NCBI RefSeq assembly: GCF_024584705.1
Contig: NZ_CP097384.1
Span: forward strand, 186,001 to 250,000
Length of the DNA stretch: 64,000 nucleotides
Reading direction: 5' to 3'
DNA from: Blastopirellula sp. J2-11
GTDB taxonomy: Bacteria > Planctomycetota > Planctomycetia > Pirellulales > Pirellulaceae
Part shown: in pieces, positions 3-23,229 of the stretch
How the letters are laid out: each line of letters begins with the position of its first letter
Position numbering within the stretch: the first letter of the stretch is position 1
Notes under the pieces: generated by a model
The model's input: the letters and a program-made list of their open reading frames with translations, nothing else
What the model was told of the DNA's origin: nothing
Database searches by the model: none
Program-made: the position numbers and the translations under genes

Positions 3-1415
3 ATCCTCTATGCGGATGATATGGGCTACGGCGACATGGGCGCCAACAATCCAAGCTCCAAGATTCCAACACCCAATCTCGATCGCTTGGCGAGCGAAGG
101 GATGCGTTTTACTGACGCGCATAGCTCTTCCGGCATTTGCACTCCCAGTCGTTACGCGCTGCTGACAGGACGATTTCATTGGCGCAAATTTCACGGCATC
201 GTCAATTCGTTCGACGCGCCGGTTCTCGAGCAGGAAATGACGATTCCTGAACTGCTGAAAGAAAAAGGATATCGAACCGCCTGCATCGGCAAGTGGCACC
301 TTGGTTGGAACTGGGACGAGATTCGCAACCAAGACGTGAAGCCGGAAAAGGATCAACGCGGTCGCGACATCTATTCGCCTGCGGCGTTCGACTGGTCGAA
401 GCCGATCAGCGGCGGGCCGTTGTCGCACGGGTTCGATTATTACTTTGGCGATGACGTGCCGAACTTCCCACCCTACGCTTGGTTTGAGAATGATCGGGTC
501 ATCACCGAGCCGACCGAGCCGCTCAGCATCACGCCGAAAACGGCCGAAGGATCGTGGGAAGCGCGGCCCGGTCCGATGGTGAAAGACTGGGACTTTTATC
601 AGGTCGTGCCCCGTTTGACGGAGCGAACGGTCGAGTGGATCGGCCAACAGAAAGAGAAGCAGGGCCCCTTCTTTTTGTACGTGCCGTTCAATTCGCCCCA
701 TGCGCCGATCGTGCCGACCGAAGAATTTCGCGGCAAATCCAAAGCCGGCGGCTTTGGCGACTATGTAGTGCAGACCGACGACAACATCGGCCGTATTTTA
801 AAAGCCCTCGACGAAAATGGTTTCGGCGAAAACACGCTGGTGATCTTCACCGCCGACAACGGCGCCGAGCGTTACGCCTATGATCGCGTTCGCAACTTCG
901 ATCATTGGAGTTCGGCTCCGCTGCGCGGCGTGAAGCGTGATTTGTACGAAGGGGGACATCATGTCCCGATGATTGTGAAGTGGCCTGCTCAGGTGCAGCC
1001 CGACACGACCAGCGATGCGCTGGTCAGCCAGGTCGATCTGCTGGCGAGCGTCGCGGAGATCGTCGGGTTTGAATTGCCGCAGGGCGCCGCTGACGACAGT
1101 TACAGTTTGCTGAAAGTCTGGAAAGAGAACGACGCGAGCCCGCGTCAGAGTATCGTTCATAACACGATGGCCGGCCGCTTTGCGATCCGCGACGGCGATT
1201 GGGTGCTGATCGCAGCAAAGACCGGCGCTCATAGCAAGGTCCCTGCTTGGTTCGACAAAGAACGAGGCTATACCGAGGATGGTTTGCCAGGCGAACTGTA
1301 CAACCTGAAGCTGGACATCGCTCAAATGCATAATCTGTACGCCGACCAACCAGAAAAGGTGAAAGAGCTGACGGAGCGGATGAATCAGATTCAAGCAAAA
1401 GGACAAGTGCGCTAA
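3..1415 (+). CDS. Sulfatase (5'-truncated by window edge)
   Basis: Type I sulfatase that hydrolyses sulfate esters, probably on polysaccharides, in periplasm or outside. The reading frame is open to the window edge, so the true start and signal peptide lie upstream. The fragment opens inside the N-terminal metal site (YADDMGYGD; both Asp present). The formylglycine signature CTPSR follows, with its Cys codon at 138-140; that Cys must be oxidised by a maturation enzyme. GKWHLGW and a TADNGAE motif, which supplies late metal ligands, are also present, and the C-terminus (LYNLKLDIAQMHNLY) is typical. A GTAG-headed palindrome lies 6 bp after the stop. The family is certain; the substrate cannot be read from the sequence. 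Confidence 0.95.
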   Translation: MLYADDMGYGDMGANNPSSKIPTPNLDRLASEGMRFTDAHSSSGICTPSRYALLTGRFHWRKFHGIVNSFDAPVLEQEMTIPELLKEKGYRTACIGKWHLGWNWDEIRNQDVKPEKDQRGRDIYSPAAFDWSKPISGGPLSHGFDYYFGDDVPNFPPYAWFENDRVITEPTEPLSITPKTAEGSWEARPGPMVKDWDFYQVVPRLTERTVEWIGQQKEKQGPFFLYVPFNSPHAPIVPTEEFRGKSKAGGFGDYVVQTDDNIGRILKALDENGFGENTLVIFTADNGAERYAYDRVRNFDHWSSAPLRGVKRDLYEGGHHVPMIVKWPAQVQPDTTSDALVSQVDLLASVAEIVGFELPQGAADDSYSLLKVWKENDASPRQSIVHNTMAGRFAIRDGDWVLIAAKTGAHSKVPAWFDKERGYTEDGLPGELYNLKLDIAQMHNLYADQPEKVKELTERMNQIQAKGQVR

Positions 1416-5293: not shown

Positions 5294-7023
5294 GTCGTCT
5301 CTTTCCAATCGTCTTTCGATTCTAGCTCGGGCGATTCTTCCGATCGGCAAAAGTGGAAGAGGACCAACACCACCGCTGCCGATAAATAGGCGGCCAGCAT
5401 ATAGACCGGCGTTTGGCCCGCTGAAGTCGCCGGAAATTGTTCGACCGCCCAAGGCAATACTACCGGGCTTCCCGGCAATGGGGAATGGATCACCCCGAAG
5501 AGGGCGAACAGTCCGGATGTTGCGAAGAACCCGGCCGCTGTTAGCAAACGGCGATCAATAATCATCGCCAGCGCTGACCCCCACATCAAACTGGTGAGGA
5601 TGAACCCGCCGGAAAGCATCCGTAGCGTTTGCAGTTTTACCCCGAGCGGGCCAAAGAAGTTGCCCTGCGAGATCGACTGAATCGTCTCAGCCGAGGCTTT
5701 CACTTTATCGAGCCCGGCGGTGTCGGCCGGTAGTTGCTCGATCGCCGCCATCAACTGTGCCGACTGCCCCATGTATTGCCCCTGGGCGTCGTCCACAAAG
5801 ACCAGCACCAGCGCCGCCAACGCGGGTACGCAGGCGAGCGATACTGCCGCGTAATGCTTCTTGGAAGTCGCGAGAAAGCTTTGTGCGGTGATCTCAAGCC
5901 CGATGAAGACCAGGATTGGGAAGACCGTCGACTTGGGAACAAGCCAGTAGAGATAGCCGAAGTAGCCAAGCGTGCCGGCTCCTCCCACAAAGATCGCCGT
6001 CGCCAGCACATAGGCCGATCGGCCTCCCATCGCTTTGTACGCCGGATGTCCGATGTAGGGCGTCGTTTGAATGACGCCGCCGCACAGTCCGGCGATCAAC
6101 GTGGCGATCGCTTCGACCAGAATGATGCGGTCGGTATCGTACTCGTCGCCGACCGCCGCAGCGCTTTCGACGCAATCGATGCCGCCGATGACAGTTCCCA
6201 ACGCGAATGGAATCACCACCGGCAGGTAATGGAGCGCATCGCCAAACTGCGCGATCCAGCCAAACCGAAAGACCGCCAGCCAATCAGTCGGCAGCAGGCC
6301 TTCGCGCGGATCAAACGGCATCTCTTCCTGCGCCGCGCCCAAGATCCCGAGCCCCGACATCACGTAATAGATCGTCCCCGCGATCAGCAGCGCCGCCAGG
6401 GCGCCGGGGATCTGCTTGGGCAAACCGATGCGAGCGACCAAGGTGGTCAAGATAATCGCCAGCGCCGTCATGCCGACGACCGGGTAATGCATCGCTTCGA
6501 CGAACGGCAGAAAGCTGATCAGCACGAGCGCTACCGCCGCTAGCGAGCCGAGCAATCCGGCCCGCGGGAGGAACTTGCGGATCCAACCTGACCCGAAGGC
6601 GCACAATACCTTGAACAAGCCGCTGATGACGATCGAGCAAATCCCGATGTGCCACGTATAAACAGCGGCCTCTTCGACATTGAGTTGTAAAATGTGCTGA
6701 GCGTGGTTAAAGGCCGGTCCCAAGACAAAGAAGACCATGCCAAACGTGCTGGGCGTGTCGAGCCCTAAAGGCATAGCGGTTACGTCGTTACGTCCAGTTC
6801 TCTTGGCCAGCGCGAGGGCCATGAAGAAGAAGGCCAGGTCCCCGACAAACACGCCGATCGCGGTTCCCGGAGCCATGTGCGAGATCGCGAAGTTTGTAGG
6901 AAAGTTAAAAACCGTTGCTAGCAGTCCAATCGTTAAAAGCAGATCGGCGATGTTATCTAACATCAAGCCAAAGAACGCGTTAACGTCGCCAGCAGCCGCC
7001 CAACGGGGATGCTTATTTGTCAT
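5290..7023 (-). CDS. NCS2-family permease (AzgA/xanthine-uracil type)
   Basis: Integral membrane transporter of 577 residues with about 12-14 hydrophobic segments, related to the nucleobase:cation symporter-2 family. Recognisable parts are the N-terminal GDVNAFFGLMLDNIADLLL, a conserved TAMPLGLDTPSTFG stretch and the central GGIDCVESAAAVGDEYDTD, all like AzgA-type purine permeases. A loop around residues 425-465 is longer than usual and hydrophilic. ATG 7023 (MTNKHPRW) is preferred over an upstream GTG at 7041. It ends in a four-base overlap with the methyltransferase gene, so the two are co-translated. The substrate is inferred only from the family. Confidence 0.82.
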   Translation of the reverse strand: MTNKHPRWAAAGDVNAFFGLMLDNIADLLLTIGLLATVFNFPTNFAISHMAPGTAIGVFVGDLAFFFMALALAKRTGRNDVTAMPLGLDTPSTFGMVFFVLGPAFNHAQHILQLNVEEAAVYTWHIGICSIVISGLFKVLCAFGSGWIRKFLPRAGLLGSLAAVALVLISFLPFVEAMHYPVVGMTALAIILTTLVARIGLPKQIPGALAALLIAGTIYYVMSGLGILGAAQEEMPFDPREGLLPTDWLAVFRFGWIAQFGDALHYLPVVIPFALGTVIGGIDCVESAAAVGDEYDTDRIILVEAIATLIAGLCGGVIQTTPYIGHPAYKAMGGRSAYVLATAIFVGGAGTLGYFGYLYWLVPKSTVFPILVFIGLEITAQSFLATSKKHYAAVSLACVPALAALVLVFVDDAQGQYMGQSAQLMAAIEQLPADTAGLDKVKASAETIQSISQGNFFGPLGVKLQTLRMLSGGFILTSLMWGSALAMIIDRRLLTAAGFFATSGLFALFGVIHSPLPGSPVVLPWAVEQFPATSAGQTPVYMLAAYLSAAVVLVLFHFCRSEESPELESKDDWKETT

Positions 7024-7194
7024 TTTTGGCTGCCATGGCACGGTGTTTGCGATTAGTTCGATCGTGAGTTTAGGAGGCTAGTCGCACGCTGTCAAATCGG
7101 CGGATTTTGCTCCTTAAGAGCGTTTGCTGCGATCATTCATGGTAGGATGACCGGCAATCTGATCCGACGACAAGCGAGCGACGATCCAAGAGGA

Positions 7195-7227
7195 CTCCCG
7201 GCAGCCCGGGAGAAATCTGGGCCTTTT
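7195..7227 (+). promoter_or_regulatory. Possible leader hairpins upstream of ECF gene
   Basis: A 7-bp stem CTCCCGG/CCGGGAG (7195-7201 / 7206-7212) overlaps a competing GCCC...GGGC pairing that is followed by five T (7223-7227). This could be an attenuator in the leader of the sigma-factor operon that starts at 7272, or chance in GC-rich DNA. Confidence 0.25.
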
Positions 7228-7271
7228 TGGAATGGATGTCGAACCGTCGCCCACTTGCCGCGTAAGTAATC

Positions 7272-7925
7272 ATGACAGCCACACTTGAAATGACGCAGAG
7301 CGCTTCGGAGTTTACCTACCTCGAACCGATGTCCGACGAAGAATTGATTCTCGGATACCGGGAAACGGGGGATCGTGAGCTATTTGAAAGCCTCGTCAAT
7401 CGCTACGAGCGGGAGTTGTTCAACTACCTGCGACGCTATCTGAATGACGCAGAAATGGCGGAAGACACGTTTCAGGCCACTTTTTTACAAGTGCACCTGA
7501 AGTGTGATTCTTTTGAGGAAGGACGAAGATTCCGTCCTTGGCTCTACACGATCGCTACGAACCAAGCGATCGACGCCCAACGTCGTTCAAAACGGCATCG
7601 CATGGTCAGTTTAGACCGAACCGGTCGCGAAGATTCCGATGATATCGGAGGCTTGGTCGACCTGTTGGTCAGCGGTGAACCGGCTCCTGCTACGCAGATT
7701 GACGATGCCGAGCGCGAGATGTACATGCAAGAGGCAGTCAAGCAATTGCCGGAAACGTTGCAGGAAGTCGTGATCCTGGTTTACTACCAAGGTCTGAAAT
7801 ACCGCGAAGCGGCCGACATCCTGGGCATTCCGGTTGGAACTGTCAAAAGCCGACTGCATTCCGCCGTTCTCAAGCTGACGGAAGCTTGGAACCGCACTTA
7901 CGCCAACAACGACCATGATGCGTGA
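7272..7925 (+). CDS. ECF RNA polymerase sigma factor
   Basis: Extracytoplasmic-function sigma factor, 217 residues, which directs RNA polymerase to stress or envelope promoters. Region 2 is clear: LFESLVNRYERELFNYLRRY, AEDTFQATFLQVH, then RRFRPWLYTIATNQAIDAQRRSKR. Region 4 is VKQLPETLQEVVILVYYQGLKYREAADILGIPVGTVKSRLHSAVLKL, with a helix-turn-helix. The linker between regions 2 and 4 carries an unusual acidic stretch (REDSDDIGGLVDLLVSGEP). The end overlaps the start of the next gene by 8-11 bp, as expected for a sigma/anti-sigma pair. It is the first of three ECF genes in the window. Confidence 0.95.
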   Translation: MTATLEMTQSASEFTYLEPMSDEELILGYRETGDRELFESLVNRYERELFNYLRRYLNDAEMAEDTFQATFLQVHLKCDSFEEGRRFRPWLYTIATNQAIDAQRRSKRHRMVSLDRTGREDSDDIGGLVDLLVSGEPAPATQIDDAEREMYMQEAVKQLPETLQEVVILVYYQGLKYREAADILGIPVGTVKSRLHSAVLKLTEAWNRTYANNDHDA

Positions 7926-8967
7926 CAATCTACTAGGTTATTTGCTAAACGCCCTCGAAGAGGACGAAGCGCGCGACGTCGAAGTGATGGCCGAGCGCTC
8001 CCCGGACACCCAACAAGAACTACAGCGACTTCAATCGCACGTTGACCTGCTGGAGAACAGCTGGGTCGATGTCGCTCCGCCCGCCGGTTTAGCTGCGCGG
8101 GCTTGTGCGTTTCTTGATACCCCGGTTGGTCGCAAATCTTCCTCTGCCGACAGCTCTGCGGCGGCGACAAGGGAAGCCAGCGCGAACGATCTAGACGATA
8201 CGCCGATCGAGGATCGTCCCATCCCCCAAGGCAGCCGCGCGTTTGGCGCGCTGACTTCCGACTCGTCCCGGTTCACCATGGCCGATATGTTGGTCGCCGC
8301 CGGCGCTTGTCTGGCCGCCGCGGTCATCTTCTTCCCCGCTTTGGCCAGCAGTCGCATGTTGGCTTCGCGCTTGCAGTGCGAAAACAATCTGCATCAGGTC
8401 GGCATGGCGCTGCACGAGTTCGCCTATCAAAACAAGCAGCAATCGTATCCCGCGATCGATACCGATGGCCCCGCCGACTTTGCCGGATCATTCGGTCTGC
8501 CGCTGGTCGAACAAGGCTTTTTGAAATCGCCCGAGTATCTGAGCTGTGCGGCCAACCGCCCGAAGAACGACAAGTTCCGCTTGCCGACGCTCCAAGAAGT
8601 CGCCCAGGCCGCGCCCGACAAAATTCCAGGTCTCCACTCCAATTTTGAACTGGTTTACAACTACAACCTCGGTTCGCAGAAGAACGGCCGGGTCATCCCG
8701 CCGAAAATGCAGGGGCGCTCTGATTATCCGGTTGCTTCGGATATCGTGCGCGTTGGGGATAAGGGGGATCTTGCCCCCAACGGACACGGAGTAACCGGGG
8801 TCAATATTCTCTACGATGATGGACGCGTCGAATTCATTCGTCTGGATGAGATTCCAGATTTGGTCCGTCAGTACTATTTCAACGACCTTGGCAAAGTCGA
8901 AGCCGGCGTCAACGAGAACGATCCCGTCCTCGGCAGCGGTTTCACCAAGGCGATCGCCGGGCGCTAA
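7915..8967 (+). CDS. Anti-sigma-like / DUF1559-like fusion membrane protein
   Basis: A 350-residue protein translated from ATG 7915 or 7918, overlapping the ECF gene. Residues 1-65 (NLLGYLLNALEEDEARDVEVMAERSP) resemble the helical sigma-binding part of anti-sigma factors but lack the zinc-binding HxxxCxxC. One membrane segment follows (about residues 122-143, MLVAAGACLAAAVIFFPAL). The outer part starts SRLQCENNLHQVGMALHEFAYQN and ends NGHGVTGVNILYDDGRVEFI, the pattern of planctomycete DUF1559 pilin-like proteins (compare SCSNNLKQLGLALHNYH in the gene at 31 kb). I infer a sensor that holds the sigma factor and carries a pilin-like external domain. The fusion is visible; the function is inferred. 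Confidence 0.75.
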   Translation: MMRDNLLGYLLNALEEDEARDVEVMAERSPDTQQELQRLQSHVDLLENSWVDVAPPAGLAARACAFLDTPVGRKSSSADSSAAATREASANDLDDTPIEDRPIPQGSRAFGALTSDSSRFTMADMLVAAGACLAAAVIFFPALASSRMLASRLQCENNLHQVGMALHEFAYQNKQQSYPAIDTDGPADFAGSFGLPLVEQGFLKSPEYLSCAANRPKNDKFRLPTLQEVAQAAPDKIPGLHSNFELVYNYNLGSQKNGRVIPPKMQGRSDYPVASDIVRVGDKGDLAPNGHGVTGVNILYDDGRVEFIRLDEIPDLVRQYYFNDLGKVEAGVNENDPVLGSGFTKAIAGR

Positions 8968-9100
8968 GATCTAGCGAATTGGAAAAATTAACGGAATTGA
9001 GCGTTACATAAACGTAGATTCCAGATAGATTAGGGGAACTTCGTTCACGCGAGGTTGCTCATCTCCCCCGGAACTCCTAGATTTTTTCGATTGATACACC

Positions 9101-9352
9101 ATGCGCCGCACCGGCGATTCGACGACGATTTATTCGCGTACTCTGTTGATCCAAGACTCTTTACGACTTGGTTTCTTCATCGGCGCTGGGCTCGGCATAT
9201 TGGCCGGCGCAGCGTTCGGCGTCTATCTGCATGAAAATCTCCTGTCCCAGGCGATCGGCCTCGGCGTGGGTGGAAGTCTAGGTTCCCTGAGTGGCTGGAG
9301 AAACGGTCTGCGACGAGCCCGTTTGGCGGCGCAGCAAGTTTCGGTCGGGTAG
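9101..9352 (+). CDS. Small hypothetical membrane protein
   Basis: An 83-residue unrecognised protein with two predicted membrane segments rich in Gly and Ala (about residues 24-41 and 50-65, GFFIGAGLGILAGAAFG and AIGLGVGGSLGSLSG), similar to glycine-zipper membrane proteins, and a basic C-terminus. ATG 9101 has no strong ribosome site. Codon use resembles the neighbours, which supports a real gene, but with so little to recognise confidence stays moderate. Confidence 0.5.
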   Translation: MRRTGDSTTIYSRTLLIQDSLRLGFFIGAGLGILAGAAFGVYLHENLLSQAIGLGVGGSLGSLSGWRNGLRRARLAAQQVSVG

Positions 9353-9417
9353 AGAGGCTCCCGCGAGGTGCTCTTCTAGACGAATCGCTTGCGAGAAGCA
9401 GATCGCCAATTGGCTGG

Positions 9418-9954
9418 TTACTCCCTCGCCAACTCCAGCATCTTGCTAACCGTCCGCCAATTGCGGGCCGTTGTCGCCACACCCAAATGCCGATCCACCT
9501 TCTCCGCCAATTTCGAACGGCCAATTCCACTAGGCGCGTGTAGATAAAAAACGTCGCCGGCAAGCAAATACGATTCGTCCGCGGCTTTCAGCTTTTCGAG
9601 CGCCGCCAAGTCCGGCTTCTTTGCCGGCGCCGTAAGAAAGAAGAAATGGAGCGACTTGGGATCGTCTTGCGCGGTGGGAAAAGGATTCGCGGCGACGATC
9701 GCTTCCAGCTGATGCTGCGCAAGCAACAAGACGAGCGGAGCGAACCCTTTTGCGGCTTCGATCGCGGCGGTGATCTCGGCCGCCAGTTTGTCGCGGCTCC
9801 GTTGCTTGGATGCAAACGCCGCATTGCCGCTTTGGATGTAGGTTTTGACGTTGGTGCAACCAACTTCTTCGAGAATCGCGACCAACTCTTTCATCGGCAG
9901 CTTGTGCTTGCCGCCGACGTTGATCCCACGCAAGAAGGCCAGGTAGCTGGGCAT
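9418..9954 (-). CDS. DUF1697 family protein
   Basis: A 178-residue member of the uncharacterised DUF1697 family. The N-terminal signature MPSYLAFLRGINVGGKHKLPM and the following TYIQSGNAAF are diagnostic; the C-terminal GRSKLAEKVDRHLGVATTARNWRTVSKML is also family-typical. Length is normal. ATG 9954 is chosen because the family begins right there, and it lies 8 bp after the stop of the exonuclease gene, so the two are probably one operon. No enzymatic activity has been established for the family to my knowledge. Confidence 0.9.
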   Translation of the reverse strand: MPSYLAFLRGINVGGKHKLPMKELVAILEEVGCTNVKTYIQSGNAAFASKQRSRDKLAAEITAAIEAAKGFAPLVLLLAQHQLEAIVAANPFPTAQDDPKSLHFFFLTAPAKKPDLAALEKLKAADESYLLAGDVFYLHAPSGIGRSKLAEKVDRHLGVATTARNWRTVSKMLELARE

Positions 9955-9962
9955 GATGTCGC

Positions 9963-10808
9963 CTATGACTCGTCTGATTCTTCGGCAGTCGTCTCCTCCC
10001 AAGGATTCTCCCACCGCCCCCAACCTGCAAGATATTCTTGAAACACCGCCGTTTCGCTGGCTCGTTCTTCCAGCCAGGTTTTCGTTTGTTCAATCAGCGC
10101 TTGTTCGCGCTCCAGCGTCACCATCCCCAGCAACACCGCCGTCCGGAGAAACACAAAATAGGTGTCGAGCACGTCGCAGCGGCAGTAGTCGTTGATCTCG
10201 GCTAGGCGGCCTTCGTCGTAGAGATCCTGGACCATGTTTCCTTCGATTCCCATCTTGCCGGGCTTGCCGAGCAAGTTGGCCGCCAGATTCAAGCCGCCGG
10301 TGAACCGAGTCGCGCCGTAGTTGGTCAGCACGTCATGCAGATCAAAATGAGCGTCGACATTGTAGCGATTGCGGGGGAGCTCAAAGCTTTTGCCGTGCAT
10401 CTGAAACCAGTCCGGCACGCTGATGCCAAAGCGGAACGCGGCTAACTCGAGCAGCGGCACGTCGAACGAGCGGCCGTTGAACGTCACGAAGGTCGGCTTG
10501 CGATACGCTTTCCAGCCGCGCCAAAAGTTCTCGGCGATCACCGGCGGGCGAAAATTCGGCGCGTCAAGCAGCACCTGATCGACCAGATTGAACTCGGCGT
10601 CAACCTTGGCGATTGCGACCGAGACCGGCATCTGAAACGTGTACGGAATGAAGTCCGAACCCTTTTCGGCCATCAGCTCGGCGCGAAAGCGAGCGATCGC
10701 GTCGGCCGGCGAAAGCCCTTCGCCGGGATACTTGATCTTCGAGACGAGCGCCCCATCGGCGACGCTCTCGATATCGAAAACAAAATAGCGAATCGGATTG
10801 CCGTTCAT
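9963..10808 (-). CDS. DnaQ-like 3'-5' exonuclease (DNA_pol_B_exo2 type)
   Basis: A 281-residue protein with an RNase H-like exonuclease fold of the predicted PolB-like exonuclease group. The metal-binding motifs are visible: ExoI as FVFDIESVAD (DxE), ExoII as TFVTFNGRSFDVPLLE, and ExoIII as INDYCRCDVLDTYFVF (Asp in the YCRCDVLD helix). It lacks polymerase domains. Likely acts on single-stranded 3' ends in the cytoplasm, in repair or nucleic-acid turnover; the role is unknown. The DUF1697 gene follows 8 bp downstream. Confidence 0.85.
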   Translation of the reverse strand: MNGNPIRYFVFDIESVADGALVSKIKYPGEGLSPADAIARFRAELMAEKGSDFIPYTFQMPVSVAIAKVDAEFNLVDQVLLDAPNFRPPVIAENFWRGWKAYRKPTFVTFNGRSFDVPLLELAAFRFGISVPDWFQMHGKSFELPRNRYNVDAHFDLHDVLTNYGATRFTGGLNLAANLLGKPGKMGIEGNMVQDLYDEGRLAEINDYCRCDVLDTYFVFLRTAVLLGMVTLEREQALIEQTKTWLEERASETAVFQEYLAGWGRWENPWEETTAEESDES

Positions 10809-16207: not shown

Positions 16208-19200
16208 CTACTTGCTCGCCTTTTTTGACGGCGGCGGAGTTGCGCTGTTTGCGACCGGAAGGGTCGAGAAGCGATGGCGGACCGAGCCGAGCCGACCGTC
16301 GCCCAAAGCGTCGATCGTGATGCGATACTTGCCGGGAGTTGGCGGCAATTGGAAGCTGAGGGTCGCTTGGCCGCTGGAGTCGGTCTGAACAAGCGGCGCC
16401 CAATAAATCGTTTCCGGCGCCGTCTGGTTGCTCAGGTCGCCTGCAGCATCTTTCTGTTCGGATGCGCCGTAGGCGAAAGCGCGATAGTAAAAATCTTTCG
16501 CTGATTTCTCGGTTCGTTTGTCGGTTGCGTCGGTACTCGGTTGAGCGTCATCACCGGCGGCGCGGTCCCGTTGCGTTGCGCCTCGCGACAACATCATTCG
16601 TTGCATCGGTTGTTGATTGGGGGCCGCTTCTGCCGCAGGTTGCGAAGGGGCGAAGCCTGCGACTGGACCAGCTTGTCCCCCGCCCATTCCGGCGCCGGCG
16701 GCTTGCATCGGCAGAGCTTGCTGGGCCCTGCCTGCCTGTTTGATTTCTCGCTGTGACTCGGCCTGGCGAAGTCCGTATTCGGTCGCGCCGAGCGTTTGAT
16801 TTCGCAAGAGGAGGTCGTTCTCCGTTTGCAGCGTGGACATGTTGTCGCGCCGCTGTTGCAATTGGCCTAGTTGCGACTTCGCTTTCTGGTCGGAGAGCGA
16901 ATAACGTGATTGCGGGCGAGCGCCGACGACGCCCATTTTTCGACTATTTTCTTTGGATTCTGACGTTGGTGTTGGTGCTTCCGACACTGCGCTGATCGCG
17001 GCCATCGGCGTCGCAGGAGCAGGGCTCGCTTCCTTCTTGGCCGCCGCTTCGTCGTTGGCGGCTCGCATGGCGCGCGGCTTTTCACCGGCCCGATTTTCCG
17101 CCGTACCTTTCAACATCGGCACAGGGGCCGACTCGGCGGGGGTAGCCATCGGCGCGGCCATCGGCGTCGCTTTGCCGGCGACGCCAGGCGGTTTGGATTC
17201 GGCCAGCTTTCGCTGTTCTTCCATTTCGGCATCCGCTGTCATCGGCTGCATGTCTGAAAAAGGGGAGACAACTGCGTCGCCTGGCTCCGCGGCAAGCGAC
17301 TGACGTCGCATCTGGACGCGATCGACGTCCATGACCGACGAATCCATTTCTGTCACCGATTCTTCCAGCACCGCATCGCTAAGCTGCGTCAGGCCGTCGT
17401 TTAGTTCCGCGCGTCCGGCGCTAGACATGGCTGCTTCCGGAGCAGCGGTCGGCGCCGCGACGCTCTTCTCACGCATTGCCAGCGGATTGCTGATCGCGGG
17501 GGAGCCGACGGTTGTTGGCGCTGACATCACTCCGATCAAGATCACCGCCAGGGAAGAGACGATGATCGCCGGCCCCCAGAACCAGGGTGATCCGGCCGAA
17601 TGGAGCAGCACCAATCCGATCAAGCCAAGCATGGTGAAGATCGCCGCGCAAAGCAGCCACGGCGTCATAGAAAAGCCGGAACCGACTGCGGCCGAAGCCA
17701 TGGGAGCGGATGCGGTCGACGACGACGCGACGACGGAAGACGAGATGCGATTCTTGAGGATCAAGATCGGCGGTTCCGGATCGAAAGAAGCGAAGTTGCC
17801 GAAGTCGTTGGGGAGCATCTCCCCCATTCTCTCCAACTCTTCCGCAGGCACCGCTTGGCGACCGTAAGCGAGCTCTTGCGAGAACGCATCGCCATCGCCA
17901 TAGTCGTTGTCAGACTTGATAAATTGTCGCCAACCGTCGGTCGCCAAGATGAAATCGAGTTCCCGTTCGGCCTCCGCGTCTCCGCTCATCAACGCTTGCG
18001 GATCTTGCAATTCTTCGGGGCGTTGCAGCCGTTTGGTCAACAGTTGCGATGCGACCAACGTCGGCGAAGCTTGCGTCGTATGGGCGAAGGCGTTTTCGTT
18101 GACGACGGCGACTCCCAGGGCGGCGAGCGTCGGTTGACCCGTTTCGTCTTTGGTGACGACATGGATGTTTACCTGCTCATTGGCCGCATAGTCTTGCTGC
18201 AAATCAGGCGTTTCGATCGCCAGACGATGCGCCGGTCGACGGAAGACCATCCGTTCGGCCAGCGGCGTGATTTGTCCGAACTCACTCGCTGCGTAGAGGG
18301 TTACTTCGCCGGCGCCGGCGATCTCGCGCGGCACGTCCAAGCGAACACGCGTCGATTTGAGCGTTTGCGGAACGGCGAAGAATTGCTGCGTGACCAAGGC
18401 GCCGTTGTTGTAATAGGCCAAGCCATACCGTTGGTCGGCGTCGCGACTGACCACTTCAACTTCGAGCGGTTGATCGGCGTCGACCACCGAGTCAGACACT
18501 TTGATGGTCGCGAGGGCCGTCTCACTGATGGCCGGCAAATCGGCGTCAATCCGGCTATCGCCCAACGCGGCGGTCAGGCGATAGTTTTGCTGCGGCAGCG
18601 GAATGAAATCAAACCGGCCGCGACCACGATATTCGGTCTTCGCCGTGGCGACGACTTCGTCACGACTGTTGAGGACGGCGCCTTGCAGTTCGACCGGCTT
18701 GCCATTGGCGTCGGTCGCATGAAAGTAAACGCGATTGCTGAGGCCAGCGACCAGCGTTCCTCCTTCGGGACAGAAGAGGACATCGACCGATTGCGGTTCA
18801 AGCGGAATCGGCGAGGCGAAAGCCCAACTTTGATCGGCGTTGGAGAAGTAAAGATGTTGCGAAATGTGAGGGGCAACGCTGTCGGTCAACTGCAACTTGA
18901 CCATCGCCAGACCATCGGCCGACGTTTCAATCTCTTGCGGCGCGGCGACAAAGCTCCCTTTCACAATCTGCCGCATCTGCAGCTTTTGATTGGCCAGCGG
19001 CTGACCCGATTGCGAATTCAATTGAAGCGACGCCGAGACTTCTTCACCAGGGCTGAACCATTCTTGGGCAAAATCAAGTTGTGCGTTCCAGACCGGCGGC
19101 GCGATCGGATCAACTTGGAACCGCGTTACATCGGCGACTCCATCCGCGTTTTTGGCGATCAGCGAATAGTTGCCGGCGATGATGTCGGAAGGAAGCGACC

Positions 19201-20122
19201 ACATGCTGGCGGCGACCCCCTGACGCGTCTCTCCCTGGTCGACGAATCCAGTCACCGGTTGTTGATTGGGATCGAAAATCTCAAAGGCGACCGCTCCATC
19301 AACCGGTTGTTGCGTCTGGCTGGTCAGCGTATTGCTGCGCCAACGGAGGGTGTCGCCGGCGCGGACCAGCGAGCGATCGAGCGAAAGGGAAGTGACCGTC
19401 TTGGGGGGCGCATTGGCCAATTGCGGAGATTCGACTTCGGCCAATTCACGACCCTGCTGCGCGAATACTTGCAGCTTCAGGTCCGCGCGAGCTTGGTCGG
19501 CCGGCAGCGCGATTCGCGCCAAGCCGTTGACCGCTTGTTGCTTGCCGGCGGCGATTGTTTCGCCTTGCGGTGATTTGAAATTGTAAGAGATCTCGGTCTC
19601 TTCCTGAGGCGCCGCTTCGTTACGAACCGAGATCGCGAAGCGATTTGCGACTTCGCTGCTGAGGACGCGGGGGCCAGAGACTTCCAGCTCGATCGCCGGG
19701 GGCGAAACTTCCGAGCCAGCCACCGCAACGCGAACTTTGGACGGCGTTGAATGGAAAGCCGTTTGCGTCAACTCTGCTGTGTTCGAAAAGAAGACCGCCG
19801 CGCCGCTAGCGAGAACCAGAACCGACGCCGCCAGAGCGGTCAAGACTTGCAAGCCGCGGACAAACCCCTGCATCGCTCGTGAACGTTCCACCCGATCTTG
19901 GTCTTGCGCCTGCTTCTTCCAAGCGGCGAAGTCGGGCAGGGGAACTTCGGTCATGCGAACGGCCGACCCCAACAAATCGGTCTGCTCTTTCACCTCGGCG
20001 TAGGTCCGGGCCAACTCCGGATCGCGACCGATACGACCAGCCAACCGTGACGCTTCGTCAGCGGGGAGCAAGCCGTAAATCAGCTCGAGCAATTGTTGTC
20101 GGATTTCGTCGTGATCGGTCAT
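16208..20122 (-). CDS. Anti-sigma-like / MG2 macroglobulin fusion membrane protein
   Basis: A 1304-residue protein. Residues 1-65 (HDEIRQQLLELIYGLLPADEASRLAGRIGRDPEL) look like the helical sigma-binding part of anti-sigma factors without a zinc site. A membrane segment lies at about 88-112. A long run of beta-sandwich domains follows, including macroglobulin MG2-like PVWNAQLDFAQEWFSPGEEVSASLQLNS split over several modules. Two further membrane segments lie at about 820-870, then an Ala/Met/Gln-rich stretch, and the last about 90 residues start an alpha-2-macroglobulin domain (YWAPLVQTDSSGQATLSFQLPP). The rest of A2M, including any thioester CGEQ, is absent. It lies 69 bp downstream of an ECF gene on the same strand, so it probably holds and senses for that sigma factor. 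Confidence 0.75.
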   Translation of the reverse strand: MTDHDEIRQQLLELIYGLLPADEASRLAGRIGRDPELARTYAEVKEQTDLLGSAVRMTEVPLPDFAAWKKQAQDQDRVERSRAMQGFVRGLQVLTALAASVLVLASGAAVFFSNTAELTQTAFHSTPSKVRVAVAGSEVSPPAIELEVSGPRVLSSEVANRFAISVRNEAAPQEETEISYNFKSPQGETIAAGKQQAVNGLARIALPADQARADLKLQVFAQQGRELAEVESPQLANAPPKTVTSLSLDRSLVRAGDTLRWRSNTLTSQTQQPVDGAVAFEIFDPNQQPVTGFVDQGETRQGVAASMWSLPSDIIAGNYSLIAKNADGVADVTRFQVDPIAPPVWNAQLDFAQEWFSPGEEVSASLQLNSQSGQPLANQKLQMRQIVKGSFVAAPQEIETSADGLAMVKLQLTDSVAPHISQHLYFSNADQSWAFASPIPLEPQSVDVLFCPEGGTLVAGLSNRVYFHATDANGKPVELQGAVLNSRDEVVATAKTEYRGRGRFDFIPLPQQNYRLTAALGDSRIDADLPAISETALATIKVSDSVVDADQPLEVEVVSRDADQRYGLAYYNNGALVTQQFFAVPQTLKSTRVRLDVPREIAGAGEVTLYAASEFGQITPLAERMVFRRPAHRLAIETPDLQQDYAANEQVNIHVVTKDETGQPTLAALGVAVVNENAFAHTTQASPTLVASQLLTKRLQRPEELQDPQALMSGDAEAERELDFILATDGWRQFIKSDNDYGDGDAFSQELAYGRQAVPAEELERMGEMLPNDFGNFASFDPEPPILILKNRISSSVVASSSTASAPMASAAVGSGFSMTPWLLCAAIFTMLGLIGLVLLHSAGSPWFWGPAIIVSSLAVILIGVMSAPTTVGSPAISNPLAMREKSVAAPTAAPEAAMSSAGRAELNDGLTQLSDAVLEESVTEMDSSVMDVDRVQMRRQSLAAEPGDAVVSPFSDMQPMTADAEMEEQRKLAESKPPGVAGKATPMAAPMATPAESAPVPMLKGTAENRAGEKPRAMRAANDEAAAKKEASPAPATPMAAISAVSEAPTPTSESKENSRKMGVVGARPQSRYSLSDQKAKSQLGQLQQRRDNMSTLQTENDLLLRNQTLGATEYGLRQAESQREIKQAGRAQQALPMQAAGAGMGGGQAGPVAGFAPSQPAAEAAPNQQPMQRMMLSRGATQRDRAAGDDAQPSTDATDKRTEKSAKDFYYRAFAYGASEQKDAAGDLSNQTAPETIYWAPLVQTDSSGQATLSFQLPPTPGKYRITIDALGDGRLGSVRHRFSTLPVANSATPPPSKKASK

Positions 20123-20191
20123 CGAACTTTTAGGTGGTAAACGCAGGTGGGCGAGTTTCCTTGGGCGGTTTCCGGGGGGCGGAGCTATCGG

Positions 20192-20752
20192 TTAGTGAGG
20201 TGCGTCGGCCTTGCTAGGGGCCAGGATGGTGCGCAGTTTTTCGAGCGCCATCCGCATGCGTGTTTTCACCGTGCCGGAGGGGATCTCCAGCGCCACGGCG
20301 ATTTCGTCGTAGGTCATGTCACCATTTTGACGAAGCAGGAACACTTCCCGTTCTTCGTCACGCAGTTGCATCACGGCAAGCCGCATCCGATCGATCTGTT
20401 CGGCATGCTCCGCTTTGCTCTCGACCGACGCATGCGGGCTGATGACCGTTTCTTCTTCGGCGACCAGGTGCTGGCGCTTGCGGCGCCAGGCGCTTTCACG
20501 ATGATCGCGACCGGTGTTGATCGCAATGCGGAAAATCCAGGCTCGCACATTTTCAATTTCGGGTAATTTGTCTTGGTGCCGCCAGCATTTGATGAAGGAG
20601 TCTTGGAGTGCGTCGCGAGCGTCCTCCATATTACCTAGCAAATGGTACAAGGCGCCCAGCAACTCGCCGTGAAGGCGCGCAAACACGTCCTCCAACGATT
20701 CCTGCTGTTTTCGGCAGGTCCGAGTTTTGTTGCCTTGACCGAGCTTCGCCAC
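20192..20752 (-). CDS. ECF RNA polymerase sigma factor
   Basis: A 186-residue sigma-70 family factor. Region 2: VFARLHGELLGALYHLLGNMEDARDALQDSFIKCWRH and VRAWIFRIAINTGRDHRESAWRRKR. Region 4: MQLRDEEREVFLLRQNGDMTYDEIAVALEIPSGTVKTRMRMALEKLR with the helix-turn-helix. The start is GTG 20752 with GAAGGGCG about 8 bp upstream; no ATG is available early in the frame. The gene precedes the anti-sigma/MG2 fusion and diverges from a second ECF operon across a 184-bp spacer (20753-20936). Confidence 0.93.
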   Translation of the reverse strand: MAKLGQGNKTRTCRKQQESLEDVFARLHGELLGALYHLLGNMEDARDALQDSFIKCWRHQDKLPEIENVRAWIFRIAINTGRDHRESAWRRKRQHLVAEEETVISPHASVESKAEHAEQIDRMRLAVMQLRDEEREVFLLRQNGDMTYDEIAVALEIPSGTVKTRMRMALEKLRTILAPSKADAPH

Positions 20753-20936
20753 GTTTCGCCCTTCACCCTGTTAGACGACTGCTGAGTACGGCAAGATTTC
20801 GCCGCGGAGACGATTTTCAACGATTTTGACCGAAATCGCCAGCCAGTGACCAATTCTGGTCGAGAATTACCCCTTGTTTAACCAGAAACGCCGGCATTCT
20901 TGCGGTTTACCCCCATCCCTGACGATAATTAAATCT

Positions 20937-21563
20937 ATGTGGCCTACAGCCGAAAAGACGGAACAACTGATCCTGGACGCCAAAGGGGGCGACGCCGACG
21001 CGCGCGATAAGCTGCTCGAGCGGCATCGCGACTCGCTGCGCCGGATGGTCGAGATGCGGCTGGACCGAAAGATTCGCCGCCGAGTCGACGCCAGCGATGT
21101 GGTCCAAGACGTGTTGGTCGAAGCGAATCGTCGCTTGGCCGACTACATGGACAACCCAAAGATGCCGTTCCATTTGTGGCTGCGGCATCTTGCTCACGAT
21201 CGCATCATTGACGCGCATCGTCGCCATCGCGCGTCGCAAAAGCGGAGCGTCGATTTAGAGCAAAACATCGCGGCGCCGCTGAACGTCGACCAATCGTCGA
21301 TCAACATCATCGCCCAGATCTGCGATAGCGAACTGACCCCGGCCGCCGCGGCGACCATGCATGAGCTGCAAGCTCGTTTTGAACAGGCGATCGCCCAGTT
21401 AGAGGATGTAGACCGCGAAGTGGTGGTGATGCGCCATTTTGAGCAACTCTCGAATCAAGAAGTCGCCGCGGCGCTGGAGCTGTCAGCCGCCGCCGCCAGC
21501 ATGCGTTACTTGCGCGCCTTGCGCCGCCTGCGCGTGTTGTTGGGCGAACCGACCGACGAGTAA
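20937..21563 (+). CDS. ECF RNA polymerase sigma factor (kinase-linked)
   Basis: A 208-residue sigma factor of the planctomycete type that travels with Ser/Thr kinases. Region 2: LLERHRDSLRRMVEMRLDRKIRRRVDASDVVQDVLVEANRRL and PFHLWLRHLAHDRIIDAHRRHR. Region 4: LEDVDREVVVMRHFEQLSNQEVAAALELSAAAASMRYLRALRRLR. The MVEMRLDRKIRRRVDASDVVQ wording is characteristic of ECF factors found with kinases in Planctomycetes. ATG 20937 (MWPTAEKTEQ) is preferred over an upstream frame extension. The kinase gene starts 7 bp after the stop codon, so the two form one operon. Confidence 0.93.
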   Translation: MWPTAEKTEQLILDAKGGDADARDKLLERHRDSLRRMVEMRLDRKIRRRVDASDVVQDVLVEANRRLADYMDNPKMPFHLWLRHLAHDRIIDAHRRHRASQKRSVDLEQNIAAPLNVDQSSINIIAQICDSELTPAAAATMHELQARFEQAIAQLEDVDREVVVMRHFEQLSNQEVAAALELSAAAASMRYLRALRRLRVLLGEPTDE

Positions 21564-21570
21564 ACCACGT

Positions 21571-23229
21571 ATGACCGAAGACGCCGACCAGCGTGACGAG
21601 CGCCTTGCCGCATTGATCGATCAGCTCACCTCCCAGGTGCAAGCCGGGCAATCGGTCGATCTGGATCACGTCGCCGCGTCGCATCCCGATCTAGCGAGCG
21701 ACCTGCGTGAGCTGTGGGGCGCCGTGATGCTGGCCGACGCGGTGGCGACGCAAGTTCGCAGCGACCAGGCCATCACGCAAAGCATCACTGGCTCATCCAG
21801 CGGTAATTTGTCGCCGCTTAGTTTGCCGGCGGATTTCGGCGACTATCACCTGTTGGAAGAGATCGGTCGCGGCGGGATGGGAATCGTCTATCGCGCGCGG
21901 CAAAAAAGTCTCGATCGCATCGTCGCCGTGAAGATGGTCTTGCGCGATCGCCTGGCGTCGCTTGAAGATCAGGCCCGCTTTCGCAGTGAAGCGGAAGCGG
22001 CCGCGCGGATCGAGCATTCCTCGATCGTGCCGATTTACGAAGTGGGAGAGTTTGATCGCCGCTGCTACTTCACAATGAAGTACGTGCAGGGAGAGACGCT
22101 TTCAGACCGAATTGCCCGCGGTCCCATGGCGCCGCGTGATGCGGCTCTGCTGCTAAAGCAAGTCGCCGACGCGGTGCACTGCGCGCATCAGCAAGGAGTG
22201 CTGCATCGCGACTTGAAGCCGTCCAACATCTTACTGGATGAGACGGGGCGCCCGCTCGTGACCGACTTTGGCCTGGCGAAGCGAACGACCGACGGCATTG
22301 ATCTGACCCGCACCGGCGCGATCCTCGGCACGCCCACCTACATGGCGCCGGAACAAGCGGCCGGCAATCGAGGTCGCATCGGTCCGGTCAGCGACGTCTA
22401 TAGCTTGGGGACCATCCTCTACGCCATGTTGACCGGGCGGCCGCCGTTTCAAGGAGACTCGCCGGTCGAAGTCGTCTTGAAGGTGCTGGAACAAGACCCG
22501 CCGCTCCCACGCGAGATTTATCCCAAGGTCGATCGCGATCTAGAAATGATCGCGCTCCGCTGTTTGCAAAAGCCAATCGATCTGCGGTACGGCAGCGCCG
22601 ATGCGCTGTCACGCGACTTGAACGCCTATCTGCATGACGAATCGATCTCGGCTCGCAGCGGACGGTTCGGGCAAATCGTCTCGCGACTTTTTCGCGAAAC
22701 GCATCACGCCCAGGTGCTGGAGAACTGGGGACTGCTCTGGATTTGGCATAGCCTGGTCTTGCTGGCGATGTCGCTGGCCACCTTTGGCCTGCAACTAATC
22801 GGCGACGAAACTCGCTGGCATTACATCTTCATTTGGACCGTGATCGCCGGCGCTTGGGCGATCATCTTTTGGGGAATGCGCCGGCGTATGGGGCCGGTCA
22901 CGTTTGTCGAAAGACAGATCGCCCACGTCTGGGGCGCTGGGATGATCGGCGTAGTGTCGCTCTTCCCCATCGAAGCGCTGATGGGGATGCAACCGGTCGA
23001 ACTCTCGCCAATTCTGGCCGTGATTTTAGGAATGCTGTTTTTGATCAAAGGAGGGATCCTCACCGGCTGGTTTTATATCCAGGCCGGCGTGCTGTTTCTA
23101 ACGGCGCTGCCGATGGCGATCTTTCCGCTCTATGCGCATCTAATCTACGGCGTGATCGCGTCGCTGTGCTTTTTTATTCCGGGGGTGCAGTATTATCTGC
23201 AGCGGTTGCGGAGTGGGTTAGGGAAGTGA
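21571..23229 (+). CDS. Membrane Ser/Thr protein kinase (Hanks type)
   Basis: A 552-residue protein. The kinase domain spans about residues 90-355 with GRGGMGIVYRA (P-loop), VAVKMV (ATP-binding Lys), HRDLKPSNILL (catalytic loop), DFGLAKR (Mg site) and a TPTYMAPEQA activation segment. All catalytic residues are present. The C-terminal 180 residues carry about six membrane segments instead of the PASTA or repeat sensor domains common in this family, so the kinase faces the cytoplasm and has no large extracytoplasmic sensor. It is 7 bp downstream of an ECF gene; phosphorylation of that sigma factor or its regulator is a reasonable inference. Confidence 0.93.
   Translation: MTEDADQRDERLAALIDQLTSQVQAGQSVDLDHVAASHPDLASDLRELWGAVMLADAVATQVRSDQAITQSITGSSSGNLSPLSLPADFGDYHLLEEIGRGGMGIVYRARQKSLDRIVAVKMVLRDRLASLEDQARFRSEAEAAARIEHSSIVPIYEVGEFDRRCYFTMKYVQGETLSDRIARGPMAPRDAALLLKQVADAVHCAHQQGVLHRDLKPSNILLDETGRPLVTDFGLAKRTTDGIDLTRTGAILGTPTYMAPEQAAGNRGRIGPVSDVYSLGTILYAMLTGRPPFQGDSPVEVVLKVLEQDPPLPREIYPKVDRDLEMIALRCLQKPIDLRYGSADALSRDLNAYLHDESISARSGRFGQIVSRLFRETHHAQVLENWGLLWIWHSLVLLAMSLATFGLQLIGDETRWHYIFIWTVIAGAWAIIFWGMRRRMGPVTFVERQIAHVWGAGMIGVVSLFPIEALMGMQPVELSPILAVILGMLFLIKGGILTGWFYIQAGVLFLTALPMAIFPLYAHLIYGVIASLCFFIPGVQYYLQRLRSGLGK

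What the first reader, a model, noticed from the sequence alone, without database searches (positions are those of the whole stretch)
16208..20752. ECF sigma factor followed by an anti-sigma/macroglobulin fusion with a truncated A2M end
The 1304-residue protein joins an anti-sigma-like N-terminus, a membrane span, a long series of beta-sandwich (MG-like) domains, a second membrane hairpin and only the first part of an A2M domain, without the thioester. It looks like a sensor in which macroglobulin-like domains outside the cell control a sigma factor inside. The second membrane hairpin near residue 820-870 would put the A2M piece on an unexpected side of the membrane.
Basis: partly seen in the sequence, partly recalled or inferred. 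Interest (0 to 1): 0.6.

Follow-up and report, generated by a model that had tools for sequence, protein, structure and literature searches.

The report
Complement-like ring fused to anti-sigma factor
In planctomycete bacteria a gene-switch protein appears to be held at the membrane by a protein whose outer part is built like the core ring of our complement and macroglobulin proteins, so an immune-type scaffold may serve as a bacterial sensor; the copy studied here lacks the protein-trapping half and has only the ring.

Summary
The pair is real and conserved: an ECF sigma factor (20192-20752, -) followed by a 1304-residue protein (16208-20122, -). Residues 1-58 are, by a two-step profile link, a zinc-less relative of class I anti-sigma domains. 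Residues ~143-1288 model as a complete MG1-MG6 macroglobulin ring. The "truncated A2M" piece is the second half of MG6; the membrane hairpin and long disordered linker occupy the slot where alpha-2-macroglobulins carry the LNK/bait insert. A two-helix hairpin returns the chain to the same side, so the A2M piece lies outside with the ring. Relatives with the same head, hairpin and sigma neighbour are mostly of two forms: long, with MG7-CUB-TED and a CxEQ thioester, or short like this one, ending 3-44 residues after MG6. Short members are scattered over the tree. None of 22 has the Arg/Phe "plug" pair that in alpha-2-macroglobulins retracts after bait cleavage; 45 of 48 hairpin-bearing thioester members do. 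Best reading: a membrane anti-sigma factor with a macroglobulin-ring sensor. That the head binds this sigma factor, and what the ring senses, are inferred. I found no description in the papers searched.

The parts
20192..20752 (-). ECF sigma factor (186 aa, GTG start)
   Evidence: Sigma70_r2 and Sigma70_r4_2 over cut-off; three same-genus orthologues 94-99% identical
16208..20122 (-). 1304-aa membrane anti-sigma / macroglobulin-ring protein
19949..20122 (-). residues 1-58: zinc-less class I anti-sigma-type head
   Evidence: hhalign to zinc-type heads of relatives, probability 97.8; those hit anti-sigma structures; zinc-less heads alone do not
19787..19858 (-). residues 89-112: first membrane span
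   Evidence: hydropathy
18098..19699 (-). residues 142-675: MG1-MG5 and first half of MG6
   Evidence: AlphaFold2 model and structural alignment; MG2 Pfam 247-337; domain limits are approximate
17927..18097 (-). residues 676-732: helical LNK-like segment
   Evidence: helices in model; alignments to C3/C5 beta chains end beyond it, at residue ~793
17522..17665 (-). residues 820-867: two-helix membrane hairpin in the LNK/bait slot of MG6
   Evidence: loop charge across the family
16424..17521 (-). residues 868-1233: long disordered linker rich in Ala, Pro, Ser and Gln (bait position)
   Evidence: mostly pLDDT under 50; composition and fast divergence of 868-1205, about as fast as the stretch before the hairpin
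16259..16423 (-). residues 1234-1288: second half of MG6 (the 'A2M piece'); plug positions just before/at its start are Asn1232 and Ala1235 instead of Arg and Phe
16211..16258 (-). residues 1289-1304: conserved short C-terminal tail
   Evidence: 87, 81 and 75% identity to three same-genus orthologues
20937..21563 (+). divergent second sigma factor (TIGR02984); neighbour, membership of the system uncertain
21568..23229 (+). divergent Ser/Thr protein kinase; neighbour, membership uncertain
   Evidence: Pkinase over cut-off; C-terminal membrane spans computed in relatives of it, not for the window copy; neighbour counts

Best explanation
A sigma / anti-sigma switch. The head (1-58) inside the cell holds the ECF factor encoded just upstream. 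One span leads out to a complete MG1-MG6 macroglobulin ring. A membrane hairpin sits in the slot where alpha-2-macroglobulins carry their LNK/bait insert, followed by a disordered linker and the strands that close MG6. So the ring is tied to the membrane at two points, its N-terminus and its trigger slot. A change outside (ligand, envelope strain, or a cut in the exposed linker) would shift the ring against these anchors and loosen the head, freeing sigma. Shown by computation: the architecture, its conservation, the sigma neighbour, homology of the head to anti-sigma domains by a two-step link, and the absence of trap and trigger residues in short members. Inferred: sigma binding, the signal, and how it crosses the membrane.
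For: Head: zinc-less and zinc-type (Hx3Cx2C) heads of relatives match over 62 columns, hhalign probability 97.8, pairwise E 7.9e-13; the zinc-type profile hits 3hug_B 4.7e-5 (listed as a membrane protein, recalled as RslA), RsiW 5.9e-4, RsrA and DdvA 1.1e-3. Sigma: of 93 scored rows out of 107, window included, 70 have hairpin (at least one hydrophobic segment) and sigma, 2 hairpin only, 20 neither, and 1 (L069) is a contig-cut row that does show two spans. Of 71 sigma-linked genes 23 overlap the sigma gene by 4 nt and 65 overlap it or lie within 100 nt; sigma and ring distances correlate, r 0.68 in 68 pairs, maximum of 2000 shuffles 0.30. Ring: window residues 143-1288 align to C5 20..820 (Z 22.2, 604 residues, rmsd 5.7) and 143-1287 to C3 23..825 (Z 22.6, 615 residues, rmsd 6.8), while C3/C5 beta chains, which lack the second MG6 half, reach only residue ~793 (Z 15.2-15.7); the L080 homologue gives Z 27.3 (512 residues, rmsd 3.9) to C5b over 141..1013 of 1016. 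Side: hairpin loop net positive in 63 of 72 rows, neutral in 8 (window included), negative in 1. Constraint: second MG6 half 92/80/78% identical to three orthologues, linker 68/35/31%.
Against: No binding or regulation data. The window head alone matches no Pfam family; a profile of 20 zinc-less heads reaches no anti-sigma structure, and 1 of those 20 matches zf-HC2 weakly, E 0.0063; the zinc-less profile misses two of 15 zinc-type heads, and scores several others only at E 1-7. Window model: mean pLDDT 68.6, pTM 0.66, no inter-domain error given; rmsd of the listed complement/A2M matches 5.5-11.2 A, and only range ends are reported. The hairpin-sigma association is one change on the tree. The window's own hairpin loop is uncharged. 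L064 and L065, sigma-linked, show no MG6 half to my profiles.
Confidence: 0.72

Rival explanations
1. Protease sensor: cleavage of the exposed linker, as of a bait region, is the signal that releases sigma; long relatives also trap the protease through the thioester. (A version of the best explanation that fixes the signal.)
For: Hairpin and linker occupy the LNK/bait slot; the linker is disordered and fast-changing; hairpin-bearing thioester members keep the Arg/Phe plug in 45 of 48.
Against: The window protein and the other short members lack the Arg/Phe pair (0 of 22) and MG7-CUB-TED, so the known trigger-and-trap route cannot run here. The stretch before the hairpin diverges as fast as the linker, so fast change is not special to a bait. 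No protease is known.
Confidence: 0.25
2. Ligand or envelope sensor: the ring is used as a sensing body that does not depend on proteases, at least in short members. (The other version of the best explanation.)
For: Trap and trigger residues are absent together in short members placed apart on the tree, while ring and second MG6 half stay conserved in the window's genus.
Against: No ligand or pocket identified; the long disordered linker is then unexplained.
Confidence: 0.45
3. Decayed alpha-2-macroglobulin: short members are eroding remnants without regulatory role.
For: Thioester half missing; plug pair absent.
Against: Open frames; second MG6 half and tail conserved in four orthologues; no TED match in the downstream DNA at hand of 22 short genes, while the same queries hit 10 of 10 control loci, the weakest at E 0.002; tail lengths fall in two classes.
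Confidence: 0.05
4. The head is a helical cytoplasmic tether that does not bind this ECF factor, and the gene pair is coincidental.
For: The zinc-less heads alone reach no anti-sigma structure.
Against: Homologous zinc-type heads that do, sigma gene upstream in 70 of 72 scored hairpin rows, 23 of 71 genes overlapping the sigma gene by 4 nt.
Confidence: 0.1

Closest known systems
Class I anti-sigma factors (RsiW, RslA, RsrA, DdvA)
   Same: Small helical head, cognate-type ECF gene next door, membrane span (as in many of them)
   Different: Outer part is a six-domain macroglobulin ring plus a second membrane hairpin; the window head lacks the optional zinc motif
Bacterial alpha-2-macroglobulins, type I (E. 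coli YfhM/ECAM, Salmonella SaA2M)
   Same: MG domains, split MG domain with an insert at the bait position
   Different: No MG7, CUB, TED, thioester or plug pair; carries head, span and hairpin
Type II bacterial alpha-2-macroglobulins (MagD)
   Same: No thioester
   Different: In the passages of PMC5764988 that I saw, MagD traps a protease and sits in a six-gene operon; here nothing follows MG6 and the upstream gene is a sigma factor
Complement C3/C4/C5 MG ring
   Same: MG1-MG6 arrangement; insert in MG6
   Different: Nothing after MG6; a membrane hairpin and linker in the slot that holds the anaphylatoxin domain in complement

Membership tests
Class I anti-sigma factor | Head homologous to known anti-sigma domains | tested here: met
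   Only through zinc-type heads of relatives; the window head alone matched no Pfam family and the zinc-less profile no anti-sigma structure
Class I anti-sigma factor | Three-helix bundle plus helix 4 | tested here: inconclusive
   Model of the homologue L080 has helices 4-19, 25-37, 39-58; the following stretch 60-93 is low confidence; the window head was not modelled
Class I anti-sigma factor | ECF gene adjacent | tested here: met
Class I anti-sigma factor | Direct binding and inhibition of the ECF factor | not testable with these tools
   needs experiment
Alpha-2-macroglobulin | MG1-MG6 ring | tested here: met
   predicted models and structural alignments
Alpha-2-macroglobulin | Insert in MG6 at the LNK/bait position | tested here: met
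   position by model and alignment; protease cleavage not tested
Alpha-2-macroglobulin | Conserved Arg/Phe plug before the second MG6 half | tested here: not met
   Asn1232 and Ala1235
Alpha-2-macroglobulin | MG7-CUB-TED with CxEQ thioester | tested here: not met
   protein ends 19 residues after the second MG6 half, no motif, no TED match in 4 kb downstream
Type II bacterial A2M (MagD) | A2M that lacks CxEQ and is encoded in a mag operon | tested here: inconclusive
   CxEQ absent but so is everything after MG6; of the neighbours I named the sigma factors and the kinase; mag genes were not searched for

The most novel reading that the evidence does not exclude
A signalling macroglobulin: long relatives are alpha-2-macroglobulins whose bait cleavage and thioester capture of an attacking protease also release a sigma factor, linking protease attack to transcription; the window's short form is a derived ring-only sensor, reached repeatedly by shedding trap and trigger together.
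Probability: 0.28. Interest if true: 0.85.

Novelty: new variant of a known kind. Interest (0 to 1): 0.64.

Why it matters
Macroglobulins are known as traps and opsonins. A ring wired to a sigma factor, with a membrane hairpin in the bait slot, would be a new kind of input for ECF signalling and a natural set of parts (with and without trap) to ask which piece of the macroglobulin machine carries a signal.

Tried and rejected
Hairpin puts the A2M piece inside: rejected, two spans restore the side; loop net positive in 63 of 72 rows, though the window loop itself is uncharged.

Frameshift or assembly truncation: no TED match at E 0.01 in the 158-4000 nt downstream at hand of 22 short genes (L076 and L095 had under 500 nt); the same queries hit 10 of 10 control loci, the weakest (L065) at E 0.002.

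Short form as one clade: rejected on an 85-row tree, p-AU 3.4e-64, after dropping 22 of 107 rows (long-branch, divergent or fragmentary; 6 of the 22 short members among them). In the 103-row quick tree starred branches force at least 6 changes of the short label, with long-branch warnings. The trees are unrooted for this purpose and do not tell loss from gain; loss is my inference.

Plug absence against truncation on independent pairs: 5 pairs on starred branches, same way in 4.7 on average, opposite in 0, median p 0.0625 (range 0.0625-0.25), the least that 5 pairs can give; three rows disagree (L087, L110, L125).

The neighbouring sigma/kinase pair: a match to that sigma factor occurs in 84 of 98 genomes; one lies upstream of the ring gene in 13 of 71 loci (10 of the 20 short ones, 1 thioester member, 2 unclassified); 20 sampled regions around it, some short, hold no ring protein. 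So it is a frequent neighbour, not shown to be a part.

Upstream DNA of four orthologues is conserved but I could name no promoter. Zinc-less head profile against solved structures: no anti-sigma hit. Hand choices: starts of L106, L124 and L142 were moved, L134 (one weak segment) was counted as hairpin-less, and three sigma sequences (L128, L131, L142) both trained and were scored by the sigma profile, which is circular for those three; 14 of 107 rows were not scored (five of them do have a sigma gene upstream). In one search L067 has no Trp at the anchor position and was read by eye (Ala at the Phe position).

Full report
Check of the observation. The ECF protein has Sigma70_r2 and r4_2 over Pfam cut-off; the 1304-aa protein has MG2 at 247-337 and a sub-threshold A2M match at 1238-1280 covering profile positions 1-44 of 92. 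No thioester motif. The genome shows one copy at E up to 0.01, and two complete matches to the A2M domain elsewhere, in frames of 2072 and 2806 aa.

Relatives. Matches occur in 35 of 98 relative genomes, the window's own included. A scan of named genomes gave 273 confirmed stretches, of which only the best 80 were returned and studied; the nearest is Blastopirellula marina (83%). From the window and loci L031-L150, after merging identical rows and dropping ORFs under 700 aa, I had 107 family proteins. The order head, span, MG domains, hairpin, linker, A2M piece recurs, with an ECF gene upstream. With a general sigma profile 93 of 107 rows could be scored: 70 hairpin and sigma, 2 hairpin without sigma (L106, L138), 20 neither, and L069, a contig-cut row counted as sigma without hairpin although it has two spans near its cut end. 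The hairpin-less members carry the thioester motif and no anti-sigma head; that they are secreted is inferred; they also occur outside Planctomycetota. On an 85-row tree the hairpin changes once, so this association is a single event.

The head. A profile of zinc-less heads finds zinc-type heads of relatives at E from 1.1e-6 (L148) up to 6.5 among 4086 ORFs, and misses L127 and L145; hhalign joins the two sets at probability 97.8 over 62 columns. The 15 zinc-type heads, picked for the motif, share Cys, His, Cys and Cys at fixed columns. Eight of 17 members of a mixed set match zf-HC2, as does 1 of 20 zinc-less heads, weakly (E 0.0063). The best four structure matches of the zinc-type profile are RsiW, RsrA, DdvA and 3hug_B, the last listed only as a membrane protein and recalled by me as RslA. 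The zinc-less profile reached no anti-sigma structure, so the assignment rests on the two-step link.

The ring. The window model (residues 112-1304; model number plus 111 gives the protein residue) has mean pLDDT 68.6; over the second MG6 half, after a linker of very low confidence, the ten-residue blocks are 78 and then 89-97. It aligns from residue ~143 to ~1288 to complement and A2M chains, ending at C5 820 or C3 825, which by recalled domain limits is the MG6/MG7 border. Chains that stop before the second MG6 half match only to residue ~793, with Z 15.2-15.7. The homologue L080, a natural short form, gives a better model (pLDDT 80.6) and Z 27.3 to C5b. In A2ML1 the LNK and bait region are one continuous insert in MG6 (passages of PMC9156758), so hairpin and linker take that place. 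The aligner reports range ends only, the listed rmsd values are 5.5-11.2 A for the window model, and no inter-domain error was available.

Two main forms. After the second MG6 half, 21 of 22 short members have 3-25 residues and one (L067) has 44; longer ones that are complete at the C-terminus and have a scored MG6 half have 572-679. Five long members have no thioester motif, and L064 and L065 show no MG6 half to my profiles. The short form is not one clade. The downstream DNA at hand holds no TED match (control).

The plug. In A2ML1 Arg730 and Phe733, just before the second MG6 half, thread a channel and retract after bait cleavage; the authors call them conserved in human family members (passages). 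The profile alignment sets our R-x-D-F on human A2M R-K-Y-F. Both residues occur in 45 of 48 hairpin-bearing thioester members (exceptions L061, L062, L068). Among 22 true hairpin-less members Arg is in 21 and Phe in 22. None of 22 short members has both in register; L101 has the Phe, with Arg one place off. None of the five long members without thioester has both. So trap and trigger go together, which also argues that the window protein cannot work by the classical bait trigger. On independent pairs the trend is consistent but the sample is too small for 0.05.

Mechanism. I hold that the head restrains the ECF factor and that the ring, anchored at its N-terminus and at its bait slot, reports an outside change. 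Architecture and conservation are shown by computation; binding, release and signal are inferred. The hairpin loop is net positive in 63 of 72 rows, as expected for the inside. Ring and second MG6 half are well conserved among four same-genus orthologues, linker and pre-hairpin stretch are not.

Literature. Anti-sigma with macroglobulin gave 3 papers whose titles and abstract starts show no relation; adding ECF sigma gave 1 of these; macroglobulin, Rhodopirellula and sigma factor gave none; anti-sigma factor, Planctomycet and extracellular domain gave none; macroglobulin, Planctomycet and sensor gave 4 that look unrelated by title and abstract start. One search matched 100 papers, of which 20 were listed. 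Three papers that I asked for on ECF classification and planctomycete sigma factors are not held, so an earlier mention is possible. From PMC7406223, PMC4498604, PMC8103513, PMC5764988 and PMC9156758 I saw passages only.

Noticed in passing
window 20937-23229 (+): Divergent sigma factor (TIGR02984) and Ser/Thr kinase; a match to the sigma factor occurs in 84 of 98 relative genomes and lies just upstream of the ring gene in 13 of 71 loci, 10 of them short-form.
   Followed up: partly
window ~20753-20936: The stretch between the two divergent sigma genes is well conserved in four same-genus species, suggesting shared regulatory DNA; no promoter assigned.
   Followed up: no
L128:6200, L131:6398, L142 (residue 530 of the long ORF): The same ring and hairpin carry a different head type next to a different-looking sigma factor, so heads may have been swapped.
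   Followed up: partly
L106:6472 and L138:6347: Hairpin-bearing relatives without a sigma gene upstream; L106 has a zinc-type head beside what reads like an efflux adaptor gene, L138 shows no head in the ORF as called.
   Followed up: partly
L056:5255-5812 and 5520-10322: Head with span and ring lie in two overlapping ORFs in this relative; split gene or frameshift, not examined.
   Followed up: no
L074 residues 831-892 of the ring protein: The hairpin region weakly resembles PF20712 (Cyanobacterial TRADD-N associated two-transmembrane domain), 18.0 bits, below cut-off 24.3.
   Followed up: no
L089: A record titled Candidatus Nealsonbacteria carries a copy nested among Pirellulales in the tree; perhaps a mis-binned contig.
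   Followed up: no
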